The notes under the pieces: model-generated
What the model was told of the DNA's origin: nothing
The model's input: the letters and a program-made list of their open reading frames with translations, nothing else
The model's database searches: none
Source of the DNA: a virus
Length of the DNA: 64,000 nucleotides
Strand: one strand, 5' to 3'
Virus record (IMG/VR): IMGVR_UViG_3300040801_003310
Coordinates: 1-64,000 of that record
Made by a program: the position numbers and the translations under genes
In this document: in pieces, positions 11,932-44,937 of the stretch
Position numbering within the stretch: position 1 is the first letter of the stretch
Layout of the letters: the number at the start of each line of letters is the position of its first letter

Positions 11932-12177
11932 TTATAACTTTCCAATTAACTTTAAATAGGAGTATTCGCGGTCGCTCATTTTAATTCGCAAATAGTTTAT
12001 GCTTTCTGACTGATCGTGCGATATTTCGGCTGCTACAAAAATCTTTGCAAGAGGCCAAATTATTTTTCCTGTAGTGGTACACCTAAACGGTATTATACAG
12101 CGACGCTGGCGAAACACCAGCGACTTTAAACAAACCTCGTCATCTTGATAGCTCAAGTCCCCCATGCATTCTTCCAA
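11932..12177 (-). CDS. Small protein of the GKII-PGQMA paralogue family (3, divergent)
   Basis: 81 residues. FRQRRCIIPFRCTTTGKIIW followed by PLAKIFVAAE matches the cysteine-GKIIWP part of the two neighbours but has lost the GQMA end. It overlaps the 3' end of queE and is the last gene of the QueE transcription unit. Confidence 0.6.
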   Translation of the reverse strand: MEECMGDLSYQDDEVCLKSLVFRQRRCIIPFRCTTTGKIIWPLAKIFVAAEISHDQSESINYLRIKMSDREYSYLKLIGKL

Positions 12178-13025
12178 ATATCAACTTGCAAGCGCGGAGA
12201 ATACTTATAACCGGTGCTCAATGCCAACGCTGCAACATCTGGTGCTGTTAGGTTATACAGGTCTGATATCCCGCCAACTGGCATTAGATATACGTCACCG
12301 TCCCAGCCAGCATCTTGATAATCATGTATAAAGTGCTTGGCATGCTCAACGTCGATTTTATTTGCTACTACAAACTTCAAATAGGTTTCGCCAAACTGTT
12401 GGTAGCTTGCAACAACTTCTGGTTTAAGTGCTTCGTCGATTCTTTCTCCCGAGCACGGTAATTTTGCAGATACAGAGAACGTTACACGAATTGGCTTAGG
12501 ATTTTTTATCTGTTCCACTAGCAAGAAATTTGCAAAATCTTCTGCAATGGGTTGAGTACCGTTTGTTTCAAACGTAACGTCGGTATATCCGTGCTCTCTT
12601 AATAGCACAAACAATTCCGGATAGGCGCGCTGCCAACCCAATAGTGGTTCACCACCGGTAATAACTAAATGCACCCGTCCATCATTTACTAACCGTCCGT
12701 GAAGAGATTGGCGAACAGTTTCGATCTCTTTCATCACGGCGGGGATTTCTAAAGTAGGCGAAAGGTCCTTAAAGGCTGGGTGCCAACTTGCATATGAGTC
12801 GCAACCGGTTCTTGCTAACGGTAAGTCTTCATATCGCCATTCTGGATGCTTTTTGAAATCTTCTGCAATTTGTTCTGGTTCGGTTGTTTTCTGTGCGGAT
12901 GGCATACCAAATCCGCGGCATTGGAAATTGCATCCAAATGTTCGCAAAAACACCGAAGGCACACCAACAAACTTGCCTTCGCCTTGCAACGAATAAAAGA
13001 TTTCTGCTACTTTAAGTTTTGACAT
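12153..13025 (-). CDS. queE: 7-carboxy-7-deazaguanine synthase QueE (divergent cluster motif)
   Basis: Radical-SAM enzyme that turns carboxytetrahydropterin into 7-carboxy-7-deazaguanine. The N-terminal FYSLQGEGKFVGVPSVFLR is diagnostic of QueE, and VITGGEPLLGW is the SAM-binding GGE motif. The [4Fe-4S] motif is odd. C32-x3-C36 is present, but the third cysteine of the usual CxxxCxxC is replaced by Phe39. The likely third ligand is Cys75 in TGCDSYASW, which aligns with the usual C-D-T that ends the motif. That implies a 38-residue insertion. At 290 residues it is longer than bacterial QueE (about 220). It is cotranscribed with the phosphoribosyltransferase and QueD. Confidence 0.88.
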   Translation of the reverse strand: MSKLKVAEIFYSLQGEGKFVGVPSVFLRTFGCNFQCRGFGMPSAQKTTEPEQIAEDFKKHPEWRYEDLPLARTGCDSYASWHPAFKDLSPTLEIPAVMKEIETVRQSLHGRLVNDGRVHLVITGGEPLLGWQRAYPELFVLLREHGYTDVTFETNGTQPIAEDFANFLLVEQIKNPKPIRVTFSVSAKLPCSGERIDEALKPEVVASYQQFGETYLKFVVANKIDVEHAKHFIHDYQDAGWDGDVYLMPVGGISDLYNLTAPDVAALALSTGYKYSPRLQVDIWKNAWGT

Positions 13026-13549
13026 TAGTCATCCTGCTCCCACGGAAATACTATCCAAGGACTATATTCTTCAGTTTTTGCAATCTGAATTGCGCTATAG
13101 TCTATTGTAGCATCAGAATTACAGTTGTCAACTAAACAGGCAAATCGAACATTCTTATGCCAAATTTCGTTATCCCATGCAAGAGAATTTGGATAGCAAC
13201 CACTGCGCCAATCGTTTTTAATCCAATTGATAGTGGCACCCGAATCGTTTATATCGTCGACAATCAGAATGTTCTTACGGACTGCCCCATCATCAACATC
13301 GTACCCGTATGCCATTTCGGCCATCCAAGTATTTGATTCGAGACCCATTTCTTTTTTATCACGCAACGAAACATCCAAAGTATACATTGGCTTTTTTAGG
13401 AAATGGCTTAGCAATGTTCCTGGGATAAGGCCACCACGAGTAATACCAACAATAAAGTCTGGGTCATATTTAGAAAGAAGAATTTTCCTTGCTAAGCGAA
13501 CAACCTGTTTTTGCAAATCATCAAAGTCATAATAAACTTTAACGCTCAT
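13025..13549 (-). CDS. Phosphoribosyltransferase
   Basis: Type I PRTase fold. VGITRGGLIPGTLLSHFL supplies the first phosphate loop, and ILIVDDINDSGATINWI is the PRPP-binding loop (DD-x-x-DSG). It resembles xanthine/hypoxanthine-guanine PRTases. I chose ATG 13549 (MSVKVYYDFDDLQKQV), which makes an ATGA overlap with the queD stop. Its place between queD and queE suggests a role in handling purine or deazapurine bases, but such genes are also common elsewhere in phages. Confidence 0.8.
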   Translation of the reverse strand: MSVKVYYDFDDLQKQVVRLARKILLSKYDPDFIVGITRGGLIPGTLLSHFLKKPMYTLDVSLRDKKEMGLESNTWMAEMAYGYDVDDGAVRKNILIVDDINDSGATINWIKNDWRSGCYPNSLAWDNEIWHKNVRFACLVDNCNSDATIDYSAIQIAKTEEYSPWIVFPWEQDD

Positions 13550-14139
13550 ACTTCTACCCTGCAATGCGACTTTGGTGTTTCCCAAAACTCAACGGCAACT
13601 ACCTTCACATCCATCTTTGCCATTTTTTCCTGCGCTACTTTTAATAGCCACGCACTCAAGTTTTCGGAAGTCGGTACAAAGTCAACAAACACCATGCCTT
13701 CATACTTCTCATATACTGCCTGACTTACGTCTTTTGGTAAGAATGCTAAATCTGGCATCCAGTACCCTTCTGGAAATGAATTACACTTGGATAAGTCTAA
13801 CTCCCACCCAACCTTTGACATGTCGCCTGATGTGTATGACGATTTAATGTATTCTGGAACCTCGTGTGGCAACAATGGATCGTTACAGTCAAGGATCATT
13901 TTGTGGTCTAATACATCATCAATAAAATTCTTCATCCAACCGAGATGTTTGAAGTCGGTGACCATACCGCGCTCGAGTTCAGTACCTTCAAGCATAACCT
14001 TCAGTTTGCCTTGATGCCCGTGTAAATGCCTACAAGCAAGACAAGCACCTTCCGACCCGGTAAATTCTACATTCAATTGCTGGTTATGTACACGATGGCC
14101 ATAACACCAATCAAAACTTTTATCAATTATCCACTTCAT
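13546..14139 (-). CDS. queD: 6-carboxytetrahydropterin synthase QueD
   Basis: T-fold enzyme converting dihydroneopterin triphosphate to 6-carboxytetrahydropterin. Zinc ligands are seen in FDWCYGHRVHNQ and CRHLHGHQGKL. VTDFKHLGWMK, LDHKMIL, FVPTSENLSAWLL and FWETPKSHCRVEV are standard QueD signatures. At 197 residues it is longer than E. coli QueD (121), like other large versions with a mid insertion (PEYIKSSYTSGDMS). It is directly upstream of the PRTase and queE. Confidence 0.9.
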   Translation of the reverse strand: MKWIIDKSFDWCYGHRVHNQQLNVEFTGSEGACLACRHLHGHQGKLKVMLEGTELERGMVTDFKHLGWMKNFIDDVLDHKMILDCNDPLLPHEVPEYIKSSYTSGDMSKVGWELDLSKCNSFPEGYWMPDLAFLPKDVSQAVYEKYEGMVFVDFVPTSENLSAWLLKVAQEKMAKMDVKVVAVEFWETPKSHCRVEV

Positions 14140-26500: not shown

Positions 26501-29212
26501 TTACTGACCTAGTCCTAACGTATGAACGTCGTCGACTGGACCGCCAGGTAGATCAATGCCTTTCTTTTGCGCAAGCATTCGAACCTTAAGCAGTTTTTGT
26601 TTAATTGCTGGTGATTGTCCTGTTCTCTTGTAAAGCCCTAATAGGTTAGTCCAGGCATCTTTAATGTCTTGTACTTCTTTTGTGCCACCAATCTCAGCAC
26701 GAGCTTTCTGTCCGCCACGATTTATACCGTGTGTTTTTGCTTTACCCGCCCATTCTGGACTCCCGGTAAATTCAAAATCTTTTGGTTGATCCATTGGATC
26801 ATCAATCTGGAAAGTTGCAATCGATTCCGTGATTTTATTTAAATAACCGAAAAATTTTCTTTGCTCGTTAAATTGATTATAATCTTTTGAATCTAAATAC
26901 TTTTTGCTTGCTATATCTGCCAACTCAGTTGGTGTTAAATTAAATGTCTTGGCAAGAGTTTCAAGCCCCCGAATTTCTTCTGGCTTCTTTCCGTTATCAA
27001 GCATACGGGCCAAGTTTTTAAGATTTACTTTCTTTTCAATGTATGAGACCGGCCATGACTCTTTAAGATTCTCGCCTTGCGCGATCCAACCATCCTGTGC
27101 TAAATCTTCAACGGAGGATCCACGAACTACTCCGCCGTCATTGAACACCATTGCATGCTCGCCAGACTCTGGATTTACTGCATGTAATGCAATTTCGGTC
27201 ACTGGGTTATCTTTTGTTGCTAAGCGACGACGAACATATACAACACCATCGAACTCGAATCCCATGCTATCCGCCGCTTCTTGCTGGAGTTGGTTTGGCG
27301 TAGTGTCTGGAGCTTCTGTTAAATCCTCCATAGCGAAATAAACATCCGGCATTACTTCATCTTTTTTCTTATTTTTTTCAGTGCTAGGTTTACTTGGACC
27401 AAACTTTTTAGCTTTTGGATTACGAGCCTTTTCCGAATCGGCTTGTGCAAAGTTAATCGCTTGTGCCATGTCTTCGTCAAAAATAGTATCATAGTCGCTG
27501 GTTAAAATATGATATGGCGCACCTTTAGCAATGTTAGCCTTTACCTTTTCTAAACGTGGATCGTCTGGTTTGTAATAGTATTTTTTGCCACCGTCGATAT
27601 GCTGGACAATTACTTTACCTGTTGGGTCAATGCCGTCGCCTTTCTTACCGTAGGACTTAACGGTAACATCCATGTCTGCTATGCTTTCGCCTGTAATGCG
27701 ACCAACTGAGTCACGCTTTGGTGCAGCCGCTGCAATTTCCTCAGACCACGGAATAACTTGAAAGTTAGGATCAATTTTGAAGTTTACTGCTTTACCGTGT
27801 GGTCGTGTAAGTGCTTTGCGATATGTGTTATTTCCAGTTTTAACTAGTGCAAGTTCTGTATTATTGGGATTGTAAAATCTAAAACCACGCTTGATTTTAT
27901 AGAACGGAACTGTTCCGTCCATGTCGGCCATGCCTTCGCCTGCGATCTTTTTGTATTTCTTTTGTGCTTTAAACGCAATGCGAGCATCACGAGCAGCATC
28001 CTCATCGCCAAAGTGTTTAGCATATTCGGCATCTAAGTTACCCGAGAAGCCATAATCATCTGCACGATTCTTGGCTTTGCGCTTACCGTAGCCTGGGACA
28101 AACTTACGAGCCATTCCTTCAATGCCTCTGGCTTCTTCGACATCCTCATACCATCCTTTGTTTGCGTTCTGACCATACCAACCTTTACCTGTCTTAGACG
28201 AGTCTGGTGCATTATATGCATCGTACTCTTCATGACTTAGGTACATATCGGTGTCTGGATCATAATATCGACCTTCGCGTGGGTCATAATATAAAACTTT
28301 TCCTGAGGTAGTACGGAAAGGACCTTCAAGTCCGTCTCGCTCTTGATAACGATCGTCAATTGGCGGCAATACTGAATACCCTTCTTTTAATTTCGAAAGT
28401 GCTTCTTTTTCTGCTGCCGCGGCATTCCATCCTTTGGACATATAATCTTTTAGTAATGAGACCATCTCTGGATTGTCAGCATACTTGTTAAGCATTTTTT
28501 CCTTAGCAGCGAGCATTGCTTCCATATCGCGCTTCTGGCCTTCTGCACCCCAACCTTCTCTAACTTTGTCGGTATCTTCTTTAGTGGCCGGTCGCTTGCC
28601 TTTTGACCACGGACCAGGAATTGTCATGCGTGATGGGTCCGGGTGTGGATTACTAATATAATCATCTGGACGTTTAAAATCAATGCCTAGGTGCTGCAAA
28701 TCTTTCATAATAAAACTAAGTTCTTGTATATCAATATTGGTGATTTTATTGATTATACGCTCGCGCTGTCGCGCTGGCAATTCTTTTGCTTTTGGGTGTG
28801 TTTGCATCAAACGAATCATTGCTTTTCGTGGATCGCCTCTGACCCCGTACCAAATTCCGTAACGTGGATCTAAATCTTTGAACTTTTTACTTTCTTCTTG
28901 TACTTCATTTTTTGTTACGTTTTTAATTGGGCCTTTGTATGTATTGCCGTTTTCGTGCTTAATCCAGACGCTATACTCGTCCATGTCAATAATGGTACCG
29001 TAGAAGCCAGCACCGCCTTTAGCACCAAATCCTAAGTGTACCTTATCTCCAACTTGTAAAGAATCGTCTTCTACAATTTCGGTTTCAGCTACAGCCTCGT
29101 CAATGTCTGCTTCCGACATGCATGTACGCTTCTTAAGTTTTTGTAAGCGTCCTTCGCTTTCTTTTAACTTCTTAGGCCCTTTCATGCCTTCAAACATTTC
29201 AAATAGTTTCAT
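26501..29212 (-). CDS. Large virion-associated protein, 903 aa, with possible capsid leader
   Basis: The N-terminus MKLFEMFEGMKGPKKLKESE carries F-E/G and L-K-E/S, both resembling prohead-protease cuts. A KOW/Tudor-like unit follows near residue 55 (VGDKVHLGFGAKGGAGFYGT). The rest is a chain of short repeated-looking modules rich in Gly, Lys and Tyr (KGWYGQNANKGWYED, GESIADMDVTVK). I see no enzyme motif. It is the last gene of the late operon and is probably an internal head or tail component. The function is unknown. Confidence 0.75.
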   Translation of the reverse strand: MKLFEMFEGMKGPKKLKESEGRLQKLKKRTCMSEADIDEAVAETEIVEDDSLQVGDKVHLGFGAKGGAGFYGTIIDMDEYSVWIKHENGNTYKGPIKNVTKNEVQEESKKFKDLDPRYGIWYGVRGDPRKAMIRLMQTHPKAKELPARQRERIINKITNIDIQELSFIMKDLQHLGIDFKRPDDYISNPHPDPSRMTIPGPWSKGKRPATKEDTDKVREGWGAEGQKRDMEAMLAAKEKMLNKYADNPEMVSLLKDYMSKGWNAAAAEKEALSKLKEGYSVLPPIDDRYQERDGLEGPFRTTSGKVLYYDPREGRYYDPDTDMYLSHEEYDAYNAPDSSKTGKGWYGQNANKGWYEDVEEARGIEGMARKFVPGYGKRKAKNRADDYGFSGNLDAEYAKHFGDEDAARDARIAFKAQKKYKKIAGEGMADMDGTVPFYKIKRGFRFYNPNNTELALVKTGNNTYRKALTRPHGKAVNFKIDPNFQVIPWSEEIAAAAPKRDSVGRITGESIADMDVTVKSYGKKGDGIDPTGKVIVQHIDGGKKYYYKPDDPRLEKVKANIAKGAPYHILTSDYDTIFDEDMAQAINFAQADSEKARNPKAKKFGPSKPSTEKNKKKDEVMPDVYFAMEDLTEAPDTTPNQLQQEAADSMGFEFDGVVYVRRRLATKDNPVTEIALHAVNPESGEHAMVFNDGGVVRGSSVEDLAQDGWIAQGENLKESWPVSYIEKKVNLKNLARMLDNGKKPEEIRGLETLAKTFNLTPTELADIASKKYLDSKDYNQFNEQRKFFGYLNKITESIATFQIDDPMDQPKDFEFTGSPEWAGKAKTHGINRGGQKARAEIGGTKEVQDIKDAWTNLLGLYKRTGQSPAIKQKLLKVRMLAQKKGIDLPGGPVDDVHTLGLGQ

Positions 29213-29844
29213 TATTCAATATCCTGATTCTGACCAATTTTATACTGGACTTCTAAAATATCTTCGTACACTTCTTGTAATAATGTTTCGTCTTTACATT
29301 GCTTAACTAATTGAGTTAGATCTTTTATTTCAATATATATTTCACGTTTAATTTTCTTAGACTTGCCTTCAGCTAAATCATAAGTGCCTTTATCGTTTTG
29401 GTGTAACTTCTTCTTTTCTTTGCCCTGTACTTCTTTATCGTTGTTTTCAATTTCGTTAAAAGAACGCAAGATGTCGCTAAACGATTGCTTTTTACCTAAT
29501 GTCTCTTCATCAATTGGCTCTTCGGAAATTACTTCCTCGCCAGCATCCGGATCGCCTTCTTCGCCGCCTACTAGGTAATTGCTAGCCGGGTGTTTACTAT
29601 CACTATTTTTACCCATTTTGTGACTACCAGGCATATATGGCTTATAATGTGCGCCAGGGCCACCGCCAATTTTTTCGCCGCCTTCGTTAATGGTCTCTTC
29701 AGTTACAGCATGAAAATTCCTTAAAATATCTAGCATTGGATCCGCGGATCCTTGGGCACCGTTAGTTGATGCTTTATTAGCCATTCTTTGCTGTCCGGCG
29801 TGGTCGAAACCTTTAAGTATTTTATTCATCATTGGATCATTCAT
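29212..29844 (-). CDS. Virion-associated hypothetical protein, 210 aa
   Basis: Low-complexity, charged protein. SADPMLDILRNFHAVTEETI is followed by INE/GG and DLAE/GK, which look like internal prohead-protease sites. EVQGKEKKKLHQNDKGTYDL leads to a long C-terminal helix (REIYIEIKDLTQLVKQCKDE). It may be a core or internal protein. It overlaps the upstream gene by one base. Confidence 0.65.
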   Translation of the reverse strand: MNDPMMNKILKGFDHAGQQRMANKASTNGAQGSADPMLDILRNFHAVTEETINEGGEKIGGGPGAHYKPYMPGSHKMGKNSDSKHPASNYLVGGEEGDPDAGEEVISEEPIDEETLGKKQSFSDILRSFNEIENNDKEVQGKEKKKLHQNDKGTYDLAEGKSKKIKREIYIEIKDLTQLVKQCKDETLLQEVYEDILEVQYKIGQNQDIE

Positions 29845-31031
29845 TATTTTACTCCCATTTTAGGCTGGCGCTTACCTTTACCACGCGGAGTACGCGGCTC
29901 TTTTAACTTTGCGCCTTTTACAAATTCATCGTATGGCAATTTTTTATATTGCTTTTCTTCTTTAGATTCGTATGCATCGTAATCTTTAAGCATTGGGTCT
30001 TCTGGGTCAATTTCAAAGTCTTCAGGCTCGTCAAATCCATGACTGAACAATAAATCTTCTAATTGGCCTAGGTACTTCTCTTCAATAAACATCATGTCGC
30101 CTTGCCAATCAAAATCAAATTTGGAGTAAGCAAGTTCCATTGCGTTCTCGTTGTTAAACACGACTTCAATCATTTCGTCGCCCATAGCTTCGTGAACTTT
30201 CTTTTTAGCAGTGAACATGCTACGCAATACACGAATAGAGCCTTTCTGATAGTCACCATTGATATCAATGATGTAAGACTTTGGAGCACCTTTATATGAG
30301 CCGTGATGTATCTCACCGATTGTCCCTTCCGTGCCTTTGCGTGGCCCGCGTGTGATAACTACCCAATCACCTGGCTTTAATGCCTCGTTGACTGCTTCAA
30401 TAGACTCGCGTATTTGCACTACCTTAACCATTTCCTTATGGCCGTACTTTCTGTTCCATGCTGCTGCCCATTTCTCAGCTGACTCCTGATCAGGGTAAGT
30501 GCGTATCCAGCCGCCAACTTTAGTATCAACCACTGCAAAATTAGTATTTTTACTACCACCTAAATTAGAACCGGTCTGCAATAAATCATCATCGGCATCT
30601 TCGCCAAAGAGTCCTTTGTGCTTTTTCTCGCGGTGAATTGTTCCGCCCATTGGAGCCGATACAGAAGCTACTGCTCCTGCACTTGACGCGCCTGCGGATG
30701 CTGTTTCACCAACAGCTTCTTTATATTTCCTGGATGTTTTTTGCTGTTTAACAAAGTGATTAAATGCAGCCTGCGGGTCATTTTTAACCTTTATAGAACG
30801 TTGTGCTCCGTTGTTCATATAAATAAACAAATCGCCCGGGCCCATATAATCATCTGACGCCCATGCAGCATTGCCTACTACTTGCCCTGTCTTATTATTA
30901 ACAATTTCGTAGTCGGTGCTTTTAACATTGATATCTGGTACATAGTCTACTTCGCTGCCCGGCTCTAAAAATTTTGATCGGTTAACAGCCCGCAGCGTAT
31001 ATCCTTCTGTAATAAACTCTTTTGCTCTCAT
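29844..31031 (-). CDS. Candidate packaged internal protein, 395 aa, capsid leader MRAKEFITE
   Basis: MRAKEFITE followed by G resembles the T4 internal-protein leader, which ends I-A-E before the cut. Further candidate sites are QIRE/S and AVNE/A. The middle has WIRTYPDQESAEKWAAAWN, then a KOW-like unit (LKPGDWVVITRGPRKGTEGT). The C-terminus has an alpha/beta unit (EVVFNNENAMELAYSKFDFD). No enzyme signature is visible. It would be cleaved and held in the head if the leader works. Confidence 0.7.
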   Translation of the reverse strand: MRAKEFITEGYTLRAVNRSKFLEPGSEVDYVPDINVKSTDYEIVNNKTGQVVGNAAWASDDYMGPGDLFIYMNNGAQRSIKVKNDPQAAFNHFVKQQKTSRKYKEAVGETASAGASSAGAVASVSAPMGGTIHREKKHKGLFGEDADDDLLQTGSNLGGSKNTNFAVVDTKVGGWIRTYPDQESAEKWAAAWNRKYGHKEMVKVVQIRESIEAVNEALKPGDWVVITRGPRKGTEGTIGEIHHGSYKGAPKSYIIDINGDYQKGSIRVLRSMFTAKKKVHEAMGDEMIEVVFNNENAMELAYSKFDFDWQGDMMFIEEKYLGQLEDLLFSHGFDEPEDFEIDPEDPMLKDYDAYESKEEKQYKKLPYDEFVKGAKLKEPRTPRGKGKRQPKMGVK

Positions 31032-31319: not shown

Positions 31320-31327
31320 TATTTATG
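31320..31327 (-). promoter_or_regulatory. T4-like late promoter, start codon at the expected +1 region
   Basis: Minus strand CATAAATA, separated by CTGT from the ATG at 31315. It overlaps the stop of the M15-like gene. It should drive the late operon 31315 to 26501. Confidence 0.6.
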
Positions 31328-31739
31328 GCAATAACACTGTAAACCTTTCTCCATTACGGACGTCAACATGCAAATAGTCGTCGCCCGTCATAATCGTAGT
31401 TATATACTCAAATTCTTTTAGCGCAGATCCGTTCAAAATGTCATTTTTTACTTCTGCAATATCAAAATTTTCAAATCTGATATTTGCTGCACGACCAAAT
31501 GCGTGCTGACTGAAGCCATTATGGAATGGACATTCTGGCGTCCGCAGCCCATTCCATTCGTGTTCGCCGCCATATGCCCAATCATTTATCAGCATTGGTC
31601 CATAAACATCACGCATTCTATCCATTGTTATTAATAGCCGTTCGTCGAGCAATTCCCAACCGCAATTGCCGCACTGATTATAAATGTGCCTCGGCACAAA
31701 ATCTTGAAGTTTAAACCAACCACTTGTATATAAACGCAT
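31323..31739 (-). CDS. M15-like peptidase fold protein with Asp-to-Asn change
   Basis: 139 residues resembling D-Ala-D-Ala carboxypeptidase/endolysin M15 domains. GFSQHAFGRAANIRF corresponds to S-x-H-x-x-G-x-A-x-D, and YLHVDVR to the second zinc histidine. The zinc-binding aspartate is Asn here (AAN), so catalysis is doubtful. The start ATG 31739 (MRLYTSGWFKLQDF) is preferred. It may be a structural or recognition version, or an enzyme with altered metal ligands. Confidence 0.7.
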   Translation of the reverse strand: MRLYTSGWFKLQDFVPRHIYNQCGNCGWELLDERLLITMDRMRDVYGPMLINDWAYGGEHEWNGLRTPECPFHNGFSQHAFGRAANIRFENFDIAEVKNDILNGSALKEFEYITTIMTGDDYLHVDVRNGERFTVLLP

Positions 31740-31741
31740 AA

Positions 31742-31954
31742 TTATGTCCACGGTCTGCCATCAACTAACCCGCCCGCATTTGGATTATCAACCAATGGGT
31801 CAGTATTATTACCAGCTGGATAGCGAGTTGGTAATTGGGTTACATCGAGAGTATCTCGACGACCTGTTGTACCGCGTTTTGCCGCTGCTGCTGCCAATTT
31901 CGCATCTTGTCTATCACGCTTTAACGGTAATGTTGAAATGCCATTTGCTGCCAT
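31742..31954 (-). CDS. Conserved small structural-type protein, 70 aa
   Basis: MAANGISTLPLKRDRQDAKL, with an alanine-rich helix and a Gly/Pro/Asn-rich tail (TQLPTRYPAGNNTDPLVDNP). I recall close relatives in marine T4-like phages. It is likely a small virion component or linker. The function is unknown. Confidence 0.65.
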   Translation of the reverse strand: MAANGISTLPLKRDRQDAKLAAAAAKRGTTGRRDTLDVTQLPTRYPAGNNTDPLVDNPNAGGLVDGRPWT

Positions 31955-31971
31955 AATTTACCTCTTAATTT

Positions 31972-32559
31972 TCATCCGTAAATCCACTTATCTACTAACT
32001 TGTATTTAATGTTAAATGCACTCATAAACAATTGTAATTCATGTAAGCACTCATGACGTCCACCACCACCCATTAACGATCCACTCAGCTTGTGTAAATC
32101 AGCAATGTTAATATCTGGAACATAAATGTTGTCGTCATATAGTTCGCTTCGCCAGGAATCGCCAACTAATTCTGCTAATTCCTCTTCTTCTATATCGCGA
32201 CTATCGTTCAAATTGTTCATTACTAAATGACGAACAACTTTAATGATATCACGATTATCAACGCCCATATCCATCCAGTTACGCAAAAAGGCATAAGTCT
32301 TTTCGCGGTACTTTACCCGACGGGCAATATTTTCATCTAATCCATATTCTATATAATGCCAGGCTACTTCATCAACGGTGTCTTCGATACCAACGTCCTC
32401 GCCGTTGAAAAAGCAAGTAATAAATGCTGGGCGTTTTTGATTAATAAATTCGCATGCGTTCTCAATCGCATCGTCGTAACCTGCGGTCTTCATGTAAGCA
32501 GGTTGGAAGTCAACTAAGATAACGCTATTTTGATTAGCCTCTGTTATTATTGACCTCAT
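31972..32559 (-). CDS. Cysteine-hydrolase/isochorismatase-like protein, possible packaged enzyme
   Basis: MRSIITE/ANQNSVILVDFQPAY: the I-T-E/A junction resembles a prohead-protease leader, and SVILVDFQPAY is how isochorismatase-like hydrolases begin (catalytic Asp at D-F-Q). A helix pair (IKVVRHLVMNNLNDSRDIEE) and a Gly-rich loop (LMGGGGRHECLHELQ) follow. The usual catalytic Cys cannot be placed with certainty, so enzymatic activity is uncertain. It overlaps the NTase-amidoligase gene. Confidence 0.55.
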   Translation of the reverse strand: MRSIITEANQNSVILVDFQPAYMKTAGYDDAIENACEFINQKRPAFITCFFNGEDVGIEDTVDEVAWHYIEYGLDENIARRVKYREKTYAFLRNWMDMGVDNRDIIKVVRHLVMNNLNDSRDIEEEELAELVGDSWRSELYDDNIYVPDINIADLHKLSGSLMGGGGRHECLHELQLFMSAFNIKYKLVDKWIYG

Positions 32560-35318
32560 TGTGTTACGCCCTCATAATGCGCAGGATCATTCATTAAGTT
32601 CCTTGCTATCAATGAATGTAATTCGTTCCGTGTAGTAAACTTTCCATGAATGTTTTCATACTCGACACCCTTCTGTATTGCTGCCCGTATGCTCGATTCA
32701 TCAGTATTATGCAACATAGCTAATCGTTGAGCAAGTTCGCTGGCTTTTGTCGGATCTAAATTTATCTTTTTAGTTCTAGGCGCATTTTTTGCCTGCAACT
32801 CTTTAATCTTCTTTACTAATTGTTGCTTTGTCATTGATCCTGATGCAAACAAAGCAAACAGACGAAGTGCTTCTTCTGTGCGTTGTCCTTTAGACTTTAG
32901 ACCAGACGATGCTAACTTGTAGAGTTTCTTTGCGTAGTCTTTCTTATATGCTTCTGGGTTGGCAGCTACAGCATAAGCAACTATGAAACGATTAATCATT
33001 GGTACGATATCCGATTCCCATCTTTGTAGATATGCTGCACCACCTGCCATTCGGAACTCAATTCTATTAGACTTTAAACCAATTGACGTATATTTTCCAA
33101 AGTCAAGTCGATCTCCCAAGTTATGCATTAAGGTTTTATCAAGTTTACGACGAACTTGTTCAATAAATTCTATGAACCCTTTTGCTCCTGAGCCGCCACC
33201 TGCTGCAACACTTAAAATATTATCCATTTGTTGAACTGCACTAATTGCATAAGTGTTTAGTTCTCGGCCAAACTTTTTAAGTAAGTATTGATCACCAACC
33301 ATTAATACTAATTTAGGGTAATCTAAACTATTGTGATCTACACCTTGTAAACTAACGTTAATGTGTAATCCGCAAGATGGAGTTGTATATGCGCCGTTGC
33401 TAACAAGATACTTAACAGTTTCTGAAAACTGCTCCATTGCGTCAGTGTATTCAAGTGCTGGCGAAACTATCTCAAAGCCAGCATCGCCATCTTCGGGAAT
33501 TATAGAGGTATCTTCCTCAATGTTCCATTCACTGCGATGACCACTATCATCGGATTGACCACTGTGATAATCGCCAGTGGCTACAATATCAAGTCCAGCT
33601 TCGTTATACAAATCGCTTGCAATTTTTTCAGCAAGATCTGCATCATATACTTCGTCAGTTAACGAACCGCCTGGCCAATACAAGTCGTCACTATAGTCAA
33701 AGAATAGATCTTGCATGTTCTCATAACCTTTATGATTTTTGAGCCATGCTGCAACAGTCCATTGACTATCATCCCAGGCTAATTCATTTTCGTAAAAATC
33801 GGTTAGATAGAAATCTAACATAGCATCGTTAAATGTATCGTTCTCTTCTACAAACAAACGATGGTATGTTTGTGATTCGTCGGACAAATCATCAACAATA
33901 TCTCCCCACTCTAATGCACTACCAAACTTCTCAAATGATTCTTGCGCTTTGTCGATTATTACTTGTGCTTCACTTCGATCCATGTCATGGTAGTCGACTA
34001 AGAAATCTAATTTTTGCTCAACATCTTGTCCTGGTGTCGCCTTGGCTGATTCAGTTTTTTCGGATGTCCACTCAGCTGACTCATCTTGCAACCACTCTTC
34101 GTAATCATTTCGCAGACCTCTAAAATCTGCTTCGTCGTTGTGCGAAAAGAAACTTTCAATATCTTCCCAAGTAGTAGATATAGTAATTTCTCCACCGGTA
34201 TCTGATTCAAAATCGGTTTTGTTTCGGGGCCAACAAACTTCTAACTCAACACCAATTATTGGCATTGATGTTTTAACCAATTTCCCAACTTCGCCCTTAA
34301 GGAAGCCAGGAGACATATTCAATTCAAATAGCTCATCGATTGACTCTCGTAAAAGAGGAGGACGGCCATCTTTGTCTACAGTAAATCCAACCTTGCCTGC
34401 TTCAATTTTAATCTGATCTACACCAACATCATCGGTTGTGTTTACTCCTTTAACGATGCGACCATCTTCGACCAATTTTGTGGCTGCTGCATAAACAGCG
34501 TTAAACGAATACTTGTCAAATAAACCAGAGTTGTGTTTATACATTGACTTAATTGATTCACTAATTTGTTTTGAATTGTCGAGATAATTAAATTCTTGTA
34601 TATCTGTATTTTCTAAACTTAGTATCTTATCTTCGTGGTCGTATTTCTTATCCCAAAGTTTCTTAAACAGTCCTTGTTTACGAAGCATTTTAAATGCTAA
34701 GTTTTCTGGGCTAAACTCACCACCTTGAGCTAGACCAGCGCGGCGATATCTCTTTAAAACATCTAGCACGTTTTTCAGGTACACGAGGTCATCTGCAGCC
34801 AACGCTTGCAATGATAACTGGCGCAATTTTTCATACTTTAATTTTGTTGCAATATCATCTAAGTTTGCTCGTCGCTTGGTGGGTATTTTATTCCAGTCGT
34901 TGCGATTAACAGAATATTCACCTAAACTTGAATGTGGCTGTCTGACATCTTGTACATAGACCTCAACGTCGTATCCTTTAATTTTGATGTCATGTTGATC
35001 ATTGTATTGATACTTTTTAGCGTCAAACAATTCTCGATAAACTTCGTCTTGACTTAATTGATTAAAATCTACTACTAAATGTAAATCGATATCAGAATAT
35101 GGTGTATATGAATAAGCAGCATTAGACCCAGATATTGTTATATCAACCAATGCTAAATTAGATATGCCAATGAATTCGATAAAATCTTGAGCTATCTCTA
35201 ATAACTTTGCTCGAACAGGAGGGCGCATTTCATCCCCAACAAATAACTGAGGATTTAGTTCTGAATGAAAATTTATTGCATCAGAGAGATTATACGAATC
35301 TAATTCATTGATATTCAT
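32556..35318 (-). CDS. Nucleotidyltransferase-amidoligase fusion, 920 aa
   Basis: Residues about 55-85 hold a polymerase-beta-type NTase site: ISGSNAAYSYTPYSDIDLHL (G-S then D-x-D). Residues about 350-660 look like an amidoligase. IIGVELEVCW gives the first acidic strand, GFEIVSPALEY the E-x-V-S-P loop, and CGLHINVSL the C-x-H-x-N/H-x-S motif. A helical C-terminus follows (RKLDKTLMHNLG, AKKLYKLASSGLK). Amidoligases form amide bonds between carboxyl and amino groups. The fusion would combine nucleotidylation and ligation on one chain. The substrate is unknown. Confidence 0.75.
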   Translation of the reverse strand: MNINELDSYNLSDAINFHSELNPQLFVGDEMRPPVRAKLLEIAQDFIEFIGISNLALVDITISGSNAAYSYTPYSDIDLHLVVDFNQLSQDEVYRELFDAKKYQYNDQHDIKIKGYDVEVYVQDVRQPHSSLGEYSVNRNDWNKIPTKRRANLDDIATKLKYEKLRQLSLQALAADDLVYLKNVLDVLKRYRRAGLAQGGEFSPENLAFKMLRKQGLFKKLWDKKYDHEDKILSLENTDIQEFNYLDNSKQISESIKSMYKHNSGLFDKYSFNAVYAAATKLVEDGRIVKGVNTTDDVGVDQIKIEAGKVGFTVDKDGRPPLLRESIDELFELNMSPGFLKGEVGKLVKTSMPIIGVELEVCWPRNKTDFESDTGGEITISTTWEDIESFFSHNDEADFRGLRNDYEEWLQDESAEWTSEKTESAKATPGQDVEQKLDFLVDYHDMDRSEAQVIIDKAQESFEKFGSALEWGDIVDDLSDESQTYHRLFVEENDTFNDAMLDFYLTDFYENELAWDDSQWTVAAWLKNHKGYENMQDLFFDYSDDLYWPGGSLTDEVYDADLAEKIASDLYNEAGLDIVATGDYHSGQSDDSGHRSEWNIEEDTSIIPEDGDAGFEIVSPALEYTDAMEQFSETVKYLVSNGAYTTPSCGLHINVSLQGVDHNSLDYPKLVLMVGDQYLLKKFGRELNTYAISAVQQMDNILSVAAGGGSGAKGFIEFIEQVRRKLDKTLMHNLGDRLDFGKYTSIGLKSNRIEFRMAGGAAYLQRWESDIVPMINRFIVAYAVAANPEAYKKDYAKKLYKLASSGLKSKGQRTEEALRLFALFASGSMTKQQLVKKIKELQAKNAPRTKKINLDPTKASELAQRLAMLHNTDESSIRAAIQKGVEYENIHGKFTTRNELHSLIARNLMNDPAHYEGVTQ

Positions 35319-35337
35319 GGTTGATCCTTCATAAGCA

Positions 35338-35345
35338 TATTTATG
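35338..35345 (-). promoter_or_regulatory. T4-like late promoter
   Basis: Minus strand CATAAATA, 20 bases upstream of the ATG of the NTase-amidoligase gene, with AAGGATC as ribosome site in between. No -35 is visible. Confidence 0.6.
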
Positions 35346-35381
35346 AAGTTTCAGGTTAGAATATACGAATAAAGTGTATAG

Positions 35382-36080
35382 TTATCTTTTATAGCGGAAT
35401 TCGTGAAGACGTACTTTTGCTTCTAATAACCTAGCTTTTCTCAAAACTGTGGCGGCTCGATCTTCAAGCAACCATGAGCGTTGCTTGCTCAAACGCAATA
35501 TAGTTTCAATTAGTGATAGACGTTTATCAAATAATGGTTTTAGTTTTTTCCCTTGCGGACCATACAAATCAATTAGTAATGCTGTGCGCCCTTTATCGTC
35601 GGATTTTAGATACAGTGCCCGAATTTCGGACGCCGAACGAACTGATCTACCACCAAGCGAAAAATCTAATGTTGGTAAAAGATAAACGTATCCATGCTGT
35701 GATAACGGTTTGAGTTTCTTGGATAACGGTTGCATGTACGACGGTGAACCATCTTTTTTTGGTGCGAATGAAAACCGTTCGGCATCTTTTTCACTAACTG
35801 CAAATACAATTGCAGTTTGGTCCGGATCAACGTGATCGGTAATTTCACGCGGCATATATGGGTTTTTTACTTCGACAATTTTATCGCCAGGGATTCCAAG
35901 CAATTCCATCATTTTCTTCTTTTCTTCGAACGAAAACGGTGAAGATACCGGGGCCTGTTTCCCAGAAGATACCACGTATACATTTTCATCACCAAACTTT
36001 TTAGTTAGTGCTTCGTAGACAGATCGGTGACCTTTATGAAAAGGATGGAATCTTCCGCCATAAATTACAATAGTACGCAT
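35382..36080 (-). CDS. HxGH nucleotidyltransferase (NMN adenylyltransferase-like)
   Basis: MRTIVIYGGRFHPFHKGHRS holds the cytidylyltransferase-fold motif (GG-x-F-x-P-x-H-x-G-H). The second motif ending in I-S-x-x-x-R is represented by RSASEIRALYLK. Such enzymes transfer AMP or CMP to phosphate substrates, as in NAD synthesis. A basic C-terminal helix (LLEDRAATVLRKARLLEAKV) is added. An AATAAATA motif lies 6 bases before the ATG. Confidence 0.75.
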   Translation of the reverse strand: MRTIVIYGGRFHPFHKGHRSVYEALTKKFGDENVYVVSSGKQAPVSSPFSFEEKKKMMELLGIPGDKIVEVKNPYMPREITDHVDPDQTAIVFAVSEKDAERFSFAPKKDGSPSYMQPLSKKLKPLSQHGYVYLLPTLDFSLGGRSVRSASEIRALYLKSDDKGRTALLIDLYGPQGKKLKPLFDKRLSLIETILRLSKQRSWLLEDRAATVLRKARLLEAKVRLHEFRYKR

Positions 36081-36773: not shown

Positions 36774-37523
36774 TTATTTATATGGAATTATTTCTAATAT
36801 CTCCCCAATCACCCCGGGGGCTAGCATAGAAAGCATAATTTCTAGTTTTTCGTCATTTACATTTATATAGTGGTGGGCTTCTAGATGATGTCCCGATACA
36901 AACTTATAACGTGACGGCGCTTTTGACAGATAAACTTTTAGCGATGGGCTAACTTCAATTTGCCCTTCGTAGGTTTCTATAAATGACCTTAGCCCAGCTA
37001 TTACACTTCCGGTGCATAGCTTATGCCGCATTTTAATTCTATATTTGTAATCCGTGGATTTGCGTTTAATTGTCCCTTTTGGACGATCAATGACGCATTT
37101 TGTAATAACCAGTGGATCCCTAATCAACCTTCTATTAATATGGGGGAATTCTTCATACATTTTTAGCAGGTCGTTTACAACGGACAGATCGTTAATGTAA
37201 ACAACCGCCATCTTAGAAGTAATGCTCACCAAACGATCGGGATAAGACGAGAGTATATCGAATACCCTTGTGGTCGAATCGATGTTTATTTCGGACCAAT
37301 AATCAGGATCAACAATCCGCGGCGCTGTTTTATTGAGTTTCGCTCGCTTATGGAACATCGTTGGAATATTTTCTCGCAACAAAGTACGATTGCTTATTCC
37401 TCGCAACAGAATAGCAGTCGGTAGATAAAACTCTACCGAATACTCATACTTGTCGTAAAAAAATCGATCCCTTTTCTTAATTCTTGGGTTTAAATTGATC
37501 GAGGACAATATATCCATTTCCAT
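36774..37523 (-). CDS. Conserved phage protein, 249 aa
   Basis: Contains VYINDLSVVNDLLKMYEEFP, VITKCVIDRPKGTIKRKSTD and KYRIKMRHKLCTG, ending IMLSMLAPGVIGEILEIIPY. I recall similar proteins near DnaJ/Clp-type genes in pelagiphages, unassigned. The alpha/beta pattern is clear but no active-site motif is. It overlaps the 3' end of clpA by 47 bases. Confidence 0.65.
   Translation of the reverse strand: MEMDILSSINLNPRIKKRDRFFYDKYEYSVEFYLPTAILLRGISNRTLLRENIPTMFHKRAKLNKTAPRIVDPDYWSEINIDSTTRVFDILSSYPDRLVSITSKMAVVYINDLSVVNDLLKMYEEFPHINRRLIRDPLVITKCVIDRPKGTIKRKSTDYKYRIKMRHKLCTGSVIAGLRSFIETYEGQIEVSPSLKVYLSKAPSRYKFVSGHHLEAHHYINVNDEKLEIMLSMLAPGVIGEILEIIPYK
36775..36782 (-). promoter_or_regulatory. T4 consensus late promoter, leaderless configuration
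   Basis: Minus strand TATAAATA exactly, then ATGCT, then the ATG at 36769. With T4 geometry (motif at about -13 to -6) the start codon is +1. No Shine-Dalgarno is seen upstream. Confidence 0.7.
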
Positions 37524-39801
37524 TATCGTTCTCTACTTCTGAAGAATTATGAGTCGGTGTAGTGTTTAACTGCAAAACATCTTCATTGAATGTAATATTG
37601 GTACCATCATAACTTACACGAATAGTTTTGTCGGTTAACGATTCAAATAACATTTTTTCAGCTAGTGGGACTTTAATTAGCTCGTCGATTTTACGGGCAA
37701 GTGGTCTTGCACCCATTTTACTATCATAGCCAACATCCACTAAGTGATCAAAAACAGATTCATCAACTTTGATTTTAATGTTCTTGCTTTTTAGTTTATT
37801 TTTCAAATCATTGATAAACTTGGCAATTACCTTTTTAATTGTGAATTCATCTAGTTTACCAAACTTAACAATTGAGTCGATTCGGTTTCGAAGCTCTGGT
37901 GCAAAGAACTCTTTAATTGCTTTATCTTCTTCCCCGGTTCGTTGTAAATCATTACTAAAACCAATTTGGTTCTGCTCATTTGCGCGAGCGCCAAGGTTCG
38001 TTGTCATAATGATAATGCAATTGCGCAAAGAAACAGTTTTCCCGGACGACGAAGTAATATGTCCTTCATCTAATGCTTGAAGCATGATGTTAGAAACATC
38101 TGGGTGGGCTTTTTCGATTTCATCTAATAGTAAAATCGAATATGGGTTTTTGCTAAGTGCCGAGATTAGTTTCCCGCCACCGAGTGCGCCCTCATCAAAC
38201 CCAACATACCCTGGCGGTGCACCAATTAGTGTCGAAACTGTATGTCTCTCGTGATACTCGCTCATATCAAACCGTACGAGTTCCATATCTAACAGATCTG
38301 ATAACAACTTAGCCAATTCTGTTTTACCGACACCAGTTGGTCCAGTGAACAGGAAAGATGCAACCGGTTTATTGTCTGATCCTAATCCTGCAAAACTAAT
38401 GTTAATGCGTTTAGTGACAGCATCTACCGCAGCATCTTGACCATATAGTTTTGATTTGATGTTAATATTTAGATCTTGAACTTTCTTGCTGTTTTCATTG
38501 CGAAGACGTTCGGTTGGGATTTTTGTTGACTTGCTTACCTGTACAACAATCTTGTTAGCATCAATGATAGCACCGATGTTGTCGAGCGCCCTTTCGGCTG
38601 CGCAAGCAGCGTCGAGAATATCTATGGATTTGTCTGGGTTCATTCGATCGTGAATATACCTGGAGCTCAAATCAACCGATGTAATAATTGCGTCAGTATT
38701 GATGTTTACATTATGAAACTCTTCAAGACGCTTTGCAACACCAGTTAAGATTTTTATTGTGGTGTCGTGATCTGGTTCGTCAATAATTAATTTATAGAAC
38801 CGTCGCATTAATGCTTTATCTTTCTCAAAGCTCTCGTAATACTCATCCCACGTGGTGTTAGTAATAACCTTAATTTTCCCACGAGTGATTGCTGGCTTCA
38901 ACATATTAGAAAAGTCAAGCGAACCACCACTTGCTGAAGAGCCAGCACCTTGCATGGTATGTCCTTCATCAATGAACAATATACCGTTGCCCATCGACTC
39001 CAACGATTGAATTACTTTTTTAAACTTTTCTTCGAAGTCGCCTCGATATTTGCTTCCGGCAAGCATTGAACCAATTTCGAGGCTCCATACAATATGGTCG
39101 TCGAGGAAGGCGGGGACATCTTTTGCTACAATTTTTTGTGCCAGACCTTCAGCAATTGCTGTTTTACCGACACCCGGATCCCCAATCATTAAGACGTTTG
39201 ATTTGAACTTTTTAGCAAGAATGTCAATTGCATCACGAATTTCTTGCGAGCGTCCAATCAATGGTTCTAGTTTACCTTCCTCGGCGAGTTTATTCAAATT
39301 CATGCAAAACTCTTCCAACACTTCGCTAGCTTGCTCGTTGGTAAGTTTTGTTTCACCTTGCTGATAGTTTTCATTCCAATACTTTGCAAAGTCTTCACGA
39401 TCATCTAACCCATACTTTAACATAAAGTAGTATGCATGGGTATTAGTTTCGGAGGTAATTGAAAGGAAAAGATCTGCGGTTGTGACATATCGCCGACCAG
39501 AAAACAAAACTTGGGTCACTGCCCGATTAAAAACCCTCTCAAGAGTGTTAGTGCGTTTTGGTTGATATTTTGGATCATTTGGCGGCGTTGTTAAGAGACT
39601 AGTTAGGTATTCTTCTATATCTTTGATCATCTCATCGACGTCAATACCATAACTCTGCAATACTTTATAAAACGGTTCGTAGCTAACCAGTGCCAAAAAC
39701 AGGTGTTCGACTAATACGTATTCGTGTTTTTGTTTCTTTGCAACAGCAATAGCGTAATCGGTAATTTGTTCGATCTCTGGATTAATTTGCATATTGTTCA
39801 A
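37477..39801 (-). CDS. clpA: ClpA-like AAA+ unfoldase
   Basis: 774 residues with the ClpA layout: an N-domain (residues 1-140), D1 with Walker A GDPGVGKTAIAEG and Walker B LFIDEGH, and D2 with GPTGVGKTELAK and LLLDEIEKAHPDV. The D2 loop ANEQNQIGFSND carries the IGF tripeptide that docks on ClpP. ClpA unfolds proteins and feeds them to ClpP. A phage ClpP exists at 59638. The start is a TTG at 39801 or the ATG three codons on. No ClpS is visible. Confidence 0.95.
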   Translation of the reverse strand: MNNMQINPEIEQITDYAIAVAKKQKHEYVLVEHLFLALVSYEPFYKVLQSYGIDVDEMIKDIEEYLTSLLTTPPNDPKYQPKRTNTLERVFNRAVTQVLFSGRRYVTTADLFLSITSETNTHAYYFMLKYGLDDREDFAKYWNENYQQGETKLTNEQASEVLEEFCMNLNKLAEEGKLEPLIGRSQEIRDAIDILAKKFKSNVLMIGDPGVGKTAIAEGLAQKIVAKDVPAFLDDHIVWSLEIGSMLAGSKYRGDFEEKFKKVIQSLESMGNGILFIDEGHTMQGAGSSASGGSLDFSNMLKPAITRGKIKVITNTTWDEYYESFEKDKALMRRFYKLIIDEPDHDTTIKILTGVAKRLEEFHNVNINTDAIITSVDLSSRYIHDRMNPDKSIDILDAACAAERALDNIGAIIDANKIVVQVSKSTKIPTERLRNENSKKVQDLNINIKSKLYGQDAAVDAVTKRINISFAGLGSDNKPVASFLFTGPTGVGKTELAKLLSDLLDMELVRFDMSEYHERHTVSTLIGAPPGYVGFDEGALGGGKLISALSKNPYSILLLDEIEKAHPDVSNIMLQALDEGHITSSSGKTVSLRNCIIIMTTNLGARANEQNQIGFSNDLQRTGEEDKAIKEFFAPELRNRIDSIVKFGKLDEFTIKKVIAKFINDLKNKLKSKNIKIKVDESVFDHLVDVGYDSKMGARPLARKIDELIKVPLAEKMLFESLTDKTIRVSYDGTNITFNEDVLQLNTTPTHNSSEVENDNGNGYIVLDQFKPKN

Positions 39802-43497: not shown

Positions 43498-44937
43498 TTA
43501 CACCCGGTCTCTAAGGCTAATAAGATAGCTCATGATTCCGCTGCCGAGTATTGCAAACAAAGTTCCTGCAATAGTCAAAGTATTTCCACCATCGAAAAAC
43601 TTTCCGTATAGATAGATAGGAAATCCAATTGAATAAGCTAAAACAATACCCCAAAATATTCCTCGTTCGGTGATAATTTTTGGATTCATTAAATGCAACA
43701 TCGTTGGCAACCAAATAGTTGCCCGCATAATACCATAGAATAAAAAGATTGTTAATATTGTCATTCCTGGCCAATTCGCTATAATAAGGGCCAAGACAAT
43801 CATTACGAGCATTCCGGACCGTCCCCAAAACACCTCAGATTTGCTACTCTTAATCTTATTACGAACATCATGACCAAAGAGTGAAGCTGATGACGAAAGA
43901 TGGCTGTCAAGGACTGACACCAATCCAGCGAACAATATAAAAACGAATAAAATTAATGTCCAGCTAGGCAAATTTGCGCCAAGCGTAATAACAGTAGTCA
44001 TTCCTACCGACTCGGGCGAAATATCTAATCCTTGACCAGCAGCAATAAATCCAAGCAAGCCGACAGAAACTGGAACAACAACAAACACCAATGCACTACC
44101 AGTAAATGCTGTTATAATTTTATCTTTCTTAATAGCAAACGCTCGTTGATAGAAACTATTATCTCCCCAAAATGCACCAAGATGCCCTAGCGCCATTGAA
44201 AAACCAACTCCTAAAAAGAAATTTATAACAAATTCATTACCAAATAAAGAATCGCCTAATCCAGTAACGCCACCGAGTCCTGCTTGCAAAACATCAATTC
44301 CACCTGCATTAGAAATAACCCACGGTATAAAAATTGCCAATCCGGTCCAGAGAACAAAGATTTTAAAAATTTCTGTAACTACTGACGCTTTTAATCCATT
44401 TTGTATTACATATAGTAACGCAATACCAGATAATACAATTGTAGAAAAATGATAGTTTATTCCTGTTATTGTTTCGATTGTTTTTGCGCCCGCTAACGCA
44501 TTTAATGCAAACGCGCATGTGGCTAATACCCAAACTTCAAGTAAAAATATGTTTTGTACTCTTCCACTAAATTTTTCTTTCATGTATCCTGAGATGGTAA
44601 ACCCATCTGGTAAGTTATGTCTAATCTTCTTAGCGAAAATTCCAAATAGTACCATTGTTAGAGTATTTCCAACAGTGAACCAAAATAGACCAGCCAGTCC
44701 GCTTTGAAATGCCATCTGCGCAGATATGAAGATAGCCGGGGCCCAAGTCCAGGCTGCGCCGATGCTTAGTGCTCCTGCAAAGCCGCCGAGCTCTCGCCGA
44801 GCAACCAGGAAACTATTTTTATTTGCAGAGTAACCTTTTGCAAAATACCTAGTTAACCCAAGCACCATTAAAAAATATACAAATAATATTCCCCATCCGA
44901 CCCATTGCTCAAAAATCGGAAACCCGTTTATATTCAT
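43498..44937 (-). CDS. Sodium:solute symporter (SSS family)
   Basis: 479 residues with about 13 predicted membrane segments, full length for the family. Family features include FLVARRELGGFAGALSIGAA in TM2, then FWFTVGNTLTMVLFGIFAKK, and FAGLVSVLDSHLSSSASLFG in TM8, where paired Ser/Thr normally bind sodium. Relatives import proline, pantothenate, urea or sugars with Na+; the substrate cannot be read here. It has an AAGGA site and overlaps the HAD gene by 4 bases. Base use is like that of its phage neighbours, so it is resident rather than contamination. Confidence 0.92.
   Translation of the reverse strand: MNINGFPIFEQWVGWGILFVYFLMVLGLTRYFAKGYSANKNSFLVARRELGGFAGALSIGAAWTWAPAIFISAQMAFQSGLAGLFWFTVGNTLTMVLFGIFAKKIRHNLPDGFTISGYMKEKFSGRVQNIFLLEVWVLATCAFALNALAGAKTIETITGINYHFSTIVLSGIALLYVIQNGLKASVVTEIFKIFVLWTGLAIFIPWVISNAGGIDVLQAGLGGVTGLGDSLFGNEFVINFFLGVGFSMALGHLGAFWGDNSFYQRAFAIKKDKIITAFTGSALVFVVVPVSVGLLGFIAAGQGLDISPESVGMTTVITLGANLPSWTLILFVFILFAGLVSVLDSHLSSSASLFGHDVRNKIKSSKSEVFWGRSGMLVMIVLALIIANWPGMTILTIFLFYGIMRATIWLPTMLHLMNPKIITERGIFWGIVLAYSIGFPIYLYGKFFDGGNTLTIAGTLFAILGSGIMSYLISLRDRV

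What the first reader, a model, noticed from the sequence alone, without database searches (positions are those of the whole stretch)
32556..35318. Nucleotidyltransferase-amidoligase fusion of 920 residues
An N-terminal NTase site (GSN ... SDIDLH) and a large amidoligase-type domain (VELEVCW, FEIVSP, CGLHINVS) lie in one reading frame under a late promoter. Amidoligases are linked to peptide tagging and small-molecule synthesis. A phage that packages or expresses both activities late could modify a virion or host protein, or a nucleotide-linked metabolite. It is flanked by another nucleotidyltransferase (35382) and a hydrolase-like gene (31972), so the block 31.3-36.1 kb may be one pathway.
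Basis: partly seen in the sequence, partly recalled or inferred. Interest (0 to 1): 0.75.

Follow-up and report, generated by a model that had tools for sequence, protein, structure and literature searches.

The report
Mix-and-match phage enzyme, probably head-packaged
A T4-like environmental phage makes a 920-residue protein joining a nucleotide-transferring enzyme to a peptide-bond-forming enzyme; hundreds of uncultured phages carry relatives of these two parts, the first joined to many different partners, and sequence signals suggest they are loaded into the phage head, perhaps cut apart there, and delivered into the host.

Summary
One uninterrupted ORF (32556-35318, minus strand, 920 aa) fuses a Pol-beta/MNT-type nucleotidyltransferase (residues 1-240) to an Amidoligase_2 (glutamine-synthetase/GCS-like) domain (328-800). 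Catalytic residues of both are conserved in relatives.

It is not a one-off. IMG/VR scans found 549 places with the NTase and 440 with the amidoligase. In the non-redundant loci read here the NTase is a constant head joined to interchangeable modules: HExxH zincin, amidoligase, NT5C, GNAT, ART-PolyVal, ParB, deaminase, Gp88. That is the signature of phage 'polyvalent proteins'.

New here is a likely delivery route. The NTase gene heads a cluster whose downstream genes carry N-termini like T4 capsid-targeting sequences (84/428 downstream, 8/484 upstream, p=5e-21). Stand-alone amidoligases carry the same tag. A prohead-protease-like motif, [LIV]xE, sits before the amidoligase in 44/44 fusions, and related phages encode a gp21-type protease and gp23 capsid.

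Best reading: a modular, head-packaged effector protein that modifies host targets after injection, possibly cut at the junction by the head protease. Packaging, cutting and substrates are inferred. 'One pathway' is only partly supported; the 'late promoter' is not.

The parts
32556..35318 (-). 920-aa NTase-amidoligase fusion gene
34599..35318 (-). Pol-beta/MNT-type nucleotidyltransferase head, residues 1-240
   Evidence: PHROG 36119 E=1.5e-42; motif residues invariant in 23 relatives
35085..35129 (-). GSX10DXD active-site motif, residues 64-78
35304..35312 (-). I-N-E at residues 3-5: possible short capsid-targeting tag ending in a prohead-protease-like [LI]xE (compare T4 Alt, cut at ITE-6)
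   Evidence: the only [LI]xE column kept in at least 80% of the NTase alignment (22/23); T4 Alt from PMC5694885
34344..34463 (-). linker, residues 286-325 (RIVKGVNTTDDV...GRPPLLRE): resembles the C-terminal ending of non-fused NTase proteins (TALTVDVxP...GIPPLL)
   Evidence: compared by eye
34323..34331 (-). junction motif L-F-E (330-332) just before the amidoligase: candidate head-protease cut site
   Evidence: 22/22 in alignment A2, the only [LI]xE column kept in it; [LIV]xE in 44/44 fusions
32919..34337 (-). Amidoligase_2 (GS/GCS-like) domain, residues 328-800, with a long insert at about 375-585
34239..34253 (-). amidoligase ExE strand (GVELE, 356-360)
   Evidence: G356, E358, E360 at 1.00 in 23 sequences
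33351..33374 (-). amidoligase CGLHINVS (649-656)
   Evidence: G650, H652, S656 at 1.00
33051..33062 (-). amidoligase IEFR (753-756)
   Evidence: E754, F755, R756 at 0.96, the missing row being a truncated contig
32571..32729 (-). weak DUF5661-like C-terminal segment, residues 864-916
   Evidence: 7.1 bits, E=3e-4 for one sequence; suggestive only
35382..36080 (-). HIGH-type cytidylyl/adenylyltransferase-like gene, conserved upstream neighbour
   Evidence: PF01467 E=1.3e-9; NMN-adenylyltransferase-like; 36/36 amidoligase-fusion loci
31972..32559 (-). downstream gene (MRSIITEA...; VILVDFQPAY), no significant family hit; kept in 4/5 loci of the same sub-type
29844..31031 (-). 395-aa protein with capsid-targeting-like N-terminus MRAKEFITEG and a KOW-like motif
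26501..29212 (-). 903-aa protein with tag-like N-terminus MKLFEMFEG
   Evidence: looser match, by eye

Best explanation
The gene encodes a two-enzyme member of a modular 'polyvalent' effector family of T4-like (often giant, uncultured) phages. A constant MNT-type nucleotidyltransferase head, expected to move an NMP from an NTP onto a protein or small molecule, is fused to an ATP-dependent amidoligase of the glutamine-synthetase/GCS-like type, expected to form an amide bond between a carboxylate and an amine. Shown here: both domains, conserved active sites, repeated module swapping, and a gene cluster rich in proteins with a shared capsid-targeting-like N-terminus. Inferred: the protein is co-assembled with the prohead core, the phage gp21-type head protease trims it and may cut at [LI]xE between the domains, and the mature enzymes are ejected with the DNA and modify host proteins or metabolites early in infection. 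Substrates are unknown.
For: Domains and catalytic residues; the amidoligase model matches phage amidoligases in BFVD (E=7.9e-18), and GS and YbdK fill the top PDB ranks, though not significantly. Modularity: same NTase head with zincin, NT5C, Gp88, GNAT, ART-PolyVal, ParB_N, M48 and deaminase; 18 architecture changes on the NTase tree. Delivery: tag-like N-termini in 84/428 downstream vs 8/484 upstream genes, p=5e-21; in one 315-kb phage contig all 5 strict tags lie within 15 genes downstream of the fusion, p=6e-8; 42/45 stand-alone amidoligases carry a tag plus [LIV]xE[IVLA]xM, and the latter is at the junction in 44/44 fusions. Machinery: gp21-type protease in 7/8 and gp23 in 7/7 related contigs; their capsid proteins carry kept LxE sites near the N-terminus. 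Precedent: T4 Alt, an injected enzyme, is cut at ITE-6 and LTE-619 (PMC5694885); the first 10 residues of IPIII suffice for packaging (PMC9026906). No confirmed NTase relative in 84,980 bacterial/archaeal genomes at pattern sensitivity.
Against: No proteomics on any member with this fusion. The window protein does not carry the strict M[RK]xxEF tag, only MNINEL. [LIV]xE is short; the junction motif could be kept because it belongs to the first helix of the amidoligase. The window record is a fragment without a recognised head protease, so the protease is inferred from relatives. The window protein has two modules and no zincin. Full-length model confidence is low (mean pLDDT 62).
Confidence: 0.6

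Rival explanations
1. It is an ordinary intracellular bifunctional biosynthetic enzyme: the NTase activates and the amidoligase couples a small molecule, with the cytidylyltransferase-like and 31972 genes as further steps of one pathway.
For: Cytidylyltransferase gene upstream in 36/36 amidoligase-fusion loci; the 31972 gene in 4/5 loci of the sub-type.
Against: The two enzymes are found apart in many phages, the amidoligase as stand-alone genes, up to four in one stretch (L231), and the NTase alone or with unrelated partners such as ART, GNAT, ParB and zincin. A dedicated pathway would not be expected to swap partners this way (18 changes).
Confidence: 0.15
2. It acts late inside the infected cell on phage virion proteins or host factors and is not injected; the tag-like N-termini mark another shared feature, such as binding to the assembling head core.
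For: Stand-alone homologue AUZ94978 lies near the portal gene in Atu_ph07; no direct proof of injection.
Against: In T4 the N-terminal tag, cut after (L/I)xE, marks packaged and ejected proteins (PMC9026906, PMC5694885).
Confidence: 0.2
3. The junction motif is only part of the amidoligase fold; the protein may be packaged but stays one chain. (This rival concerns the cutting step only and overlaps with the best explanation.)
For: Flanking residues M335, P337 and L340 are kept as well; the motif also stands near the N-terminus of stand-alone amidoligases, where no domain separation is needed.
Against: It is the only [LI]xE column kept across the 600-residue alignment, and it matches the kind of site T4 gp21 cuts.
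Confidence: 0.45

Closest known systems
Polyvalent proteins (Iyer et al. 2017, PMC5512222)
   Same: Multi-domain phage proteins joining unrelated enzymes; zincin, ART-PolyVal, ParB, GNAT and Pol-beta NTase modules; predicted to be injected
   Different: In that paper Pol-beta NTases are mainly from firmicute mobile elements next to ArdC-N, and the word amidoligase does not occur in its main text. Here an MNT-type NTase is the fixed head in T4-like phages, beside genes with capsid-targeting-like tags
T4 internal proteins and Alt (capsid-targeting sequence, gp21 cleavage)
   Same: N-terminal tag ending in (L/I)xE, gp21-type protease, cluster of variable cargo genes
   Different: Different enzymes; the window protein has only a degenerate tag; processing not shown; an internal cut between two enzyme domains is not among the T4 cuts described in the papers read (Alt loses pieces at both ends)
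Amidoligase_2 (PF12224), phage amidoligases such as Atu_ph07 AUZ94978
   Same: ExE, E-x-x-S-P, HxN/HxG, EFR motifs; model matches phage amidoligases
   Different: Here fused to an NTase, with a long helical insert between ExE and the rest
MNT/ANT nucleotidyltransferases (MntA antitoxin, AAD(9), ANT(4'))
   Same: GSX10DXD plus a third acid; top fold matches
   Different: Own PHROG family (36119) with a conserved KKYQYNDQ segment; below the NTP_transf_2 cut-off; matches in the PDB not significant

Membership tests
Polyvalent proteins | two or more domains of disparate activity in one polypeptide | tested here: met
   NTase + amidoligase
Polyvalent proteins | shares the domain network of the class (zincin, ART-PolyVal, ParB, GNAT) | tested here: met
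   met in relatives with the same NTase head; the window protein itself has none of these modules
Polyvalent proteins | encoded by a tailed phage with capsid-packaging machinery | tested here: met
   gp23 7/7 and gp21-type protease 7/8 related contigs; portal and terminase not searched; the window record is a fragment without the protease
Polyvalent proteins | packaged in the virion and injected with DNA | not testable with these tools
   needs virion proteomics
Amidoligase_2 (PF12224) | score above the curated cut-off | tested here: met
   34.5 vs 22 bits
Amidoligase_2 (PF12224) | conserved candidate metal/ATP-binding residues (ExE, E, H, ExR) | tested here: met
Amidoligase_2 (PF12224) | glutamine-synthetase/GCS-like fold | tested here: inconclusive
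   GS and YbdK top the PDB list but E is about 0.3; phage amidoligase models E=7.9e-18
ATP-grasp ligases | ATP-grasp match in sequence or fold | tested here: not met
   no ATP-grasp family or structure among the listed matches
Pol-beta/MNT nucleotidyltransferase | GSX10DXD and third acidic residue | tested here: met
   G64, S65, D76, D78 and E119 invariant in 23
Pol-beta/MNT nucleotidyltransferase | Pfam NTP_transf_2 above cut-off | tested here: not met
   14.5 vs 21 bits in the window protein; 21.5 in relative L031
T4 internal (CTS) proteins | N-terminal tag M[RK]xxE[FL]-[IL]xE | tested here: not met
   window protein starts MNINELDSY: [IL]xE at 3-5 but no M[RK]xxEF; downstream genes and stand-alone amidoligases do carry it
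T4 internal (CTS) proteins | cut by the prohead protease and retained in the head | not testable with these tools
   needs mass spectrometry or a protease assay

The most novel reading that the evidence does not exclude
A head-packaged polyprotein: the phage loads one chain holding an NTase, an amidoligase and, in relatives, a zincin and further enzymes, and its capsid-maturation protease cuts at [LI]xE sites placed between the domains, so that head maturation also releases separate effectors for injection.
Probability: 0.35. Interest if true: 0.8.

Novelty: new variant of a known kind. Interest (0 to 1): 0.62.

Why it matters
It links two separately described ideas, polyvalent proteins and T4-style capsid targeting, through a short N-terminal tag that can be searched for. 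That would let one list candidate injected effectors in hundreds of uncultured giant phages from sequence alone, and it points to amidoligases and MNT-type NTases as early anti-host enzymes. The motif gives a cheap test: does the head protease cut between the domains?

Tried and rejected
ATP-grasp reading: no match. Late promoter TATAAATA: not enriched. One pathway of three genes: conserved order only within the phage group. First structure job used a MAFFT alignment (A1) in which the amidoligase segments were partly misplaced onto the NTase, so the amidoligase half of that model is not used; a second job on a clean alignment (A2) was run. Sequence searches of the PDB with the protein and both profiles gave nothing significant. 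PADLOC and NCBIfam: no match for the window protein. Scan of cellular genomes for the NTase: none confirmed. DUF5661 at the C-terminus: weak only.

Full report
What is there. The ORF at 32556-35318 (-) is a single 920-residue frame without stops. Residues 10-235 match PHROG 36119 (E=1.5e-42); the GSX10DXD motif at 64-78 and E119 make it a Pol-beta/MNT-type nucleotidyltransferase, with the motif's G, S and both D, and E119, invariant in 23 relatives. Residues 586-663 match Pfam Amidoligase_2 above its cut-off; aligned relatives place the whole domain at about 328-800, with E358, E360, D603, E616, H652 and S656 invariant and EFR at 754-756 missing only in a truncated contig. The domain model (mean pLDDT 66, best strands 80-90) matches phage amidoligases, including one of Atu_ph07 (best E 7.9e-18); glutamine synthetases and YbdK fill the top PDB ranks without significance. 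The NTase part ranks ANT(4'), AAD(9), LinB and MNT high, again not significant.

Not a one-off. Pattern scans of IMG/VR found 549 places encoding the NTase and 440 encoding the amidoligase. Each of those two scans returned only the best 80 loci, and what follows rests on the loci read. Among non-redundant complete ORFs: NTase without zincin or amidoligase 62, amidoligase alone 45, NTase-zincin-amidoligase 35, NTase-zincin 9, NTase-amidoligase 5. Many of the other NTase proteins carry different modules: NT5C and Gp88, GNAT, ART-PolyVal, ParB_N, M48 and cytidine deaminase. Several modules also occur as stand-alone genes: amidoligase (45 ORFs), NT5C and DUF6934. On a tree of 114 NTase domains the architecture changes at least 18 times. 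In cultured phages the NTase stands alone (S-N03), a zincin-matching gene alone (B23) and the amidoligase alone (Atu_ph07). No confirmed NTase relative was found in 84,980 cellular genomes. This is the pattern of polyvalent proteins (PMC5512222), whose main text does not mention amidoligases.

The neighbourhood. ClpA, two small genes, the cytidylyltransferase and then the NTase fusion keep their order: the cytidylyltransferase is upstream in 33/33 NTase-zincin-amidoligase and 3/3 NTase-amidoligase loci with enough sequence. Downstream genes often begin with M[RK]xxE[FL][IL]xE. Across non-redundant loci 84/428 downstream genes but 8/484 upstream genes have the strict form (p=5e-21). In two long phage contigs plus the window, 13 of 764 genes have it against 1 of 3230 internal methionines (p=5e-9). 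The pattern was written after reading these N-termini in some of the same loci, and related loci are not independent, so the p-values describe the asymmetry and are not a blind test. Most of the 45 stand-alone amidoligases also start with M[RK] tags such as MRAKNFIAEAELFEINMSPG (42/45 carry tag and motif).

The junction. Directly before the amidoligase, [LIV]xE[IVLA]x[MQ] is present in 44/44 fusions. In the 22-sequence alignment it is the only place where [LI]xE is kept, and in the NTase alignment the only such site is residues 3-5. T4 gp21 removes N-terminal tags of about 10-20 residues from internal proteins and cuts Alt at ITE-6 and LTE-619 (PMC7411985, PMC9026906, PMC5694885). Related contigs encode a gp21-type protease (7/8) and gp23 (7/7), and six of their capsid proteins keep LxE sites near the N-terminus. 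I infer, without direct proof, that these proteins are head cargo and may be cut at domain junctions.

Limits. The window protein lacks the strict tag and the zincin. The record is a fragment without a recognised head protease. The motif could be structural. Enzyme substrates cannot be predicted; MNT-like nucleotide transfer to proteins and GS-like amide formation are expectations from family membership. The linker before the amidoligase and much of the insert at 375-585 are modelled with low confidence.

Noticed in passing
L231:1859-11199: Four amidoligase paralogues in one stretch of a single phage contig, three with MRAKQF/MKFTEF-type N-termini.
   Followed up: no
L006, L010, L014 and others, residues about 236-290 of the fusion: A low-complexity linker between NTase and zincin: a lysine run, YG-FGG-YYYPGY, then GGGDGGGES[VIL]xE; GES[VIL]xE in 25 of 49 such proteins.
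   Followed up: partly
C-termini of L147-L209 NTase proteins; L032, L038, L050 internally: A recurring about 50-residue element (GYIPS...DPRFKTALTVDVxP...GIPPLL), at the C-terminus in 26 cases and internal in 5, in some fusions lying before the amidoligase.
   Followed up: partly
window 35327-35348 (-): An 8-bp inverted repeat CTTCATAA/TTATGAAG overlaps the CATAAATA site and the GAAGGA ribosome-binding site just before the fusion gene.
   Followed up: no
window 43498-44937 (-): A phage-encoded sodium:solute symporter (PF00474, E=6.6e-23).
   Followed up: no
window 12153-14139 (-): A radical-SAM gene and a 6-pyruvoyl-tetrahydropterin-synthase-like gene close together; possibly 7-deazaguanine synthesis.
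   Followed up: no
window 37477-39801 and 59638-60228 (-): The phage encodes a ClpA-like ATPase (by eye) and a ClpP protease (PF00574, E=2e-76); ClpP homologues lie next to the NTase in other phages.
   Followed up: no
window 60295-61848 (+): A 517-aa protein with a strict tag-like N-terminus (MKIHELLNES), no family match.
   Followed up: no
window 31323-31751 (-): Endolysin-like protein (PHROG 894, E=9.8e-13) within the cargo-like cluster.
   Followed up: no
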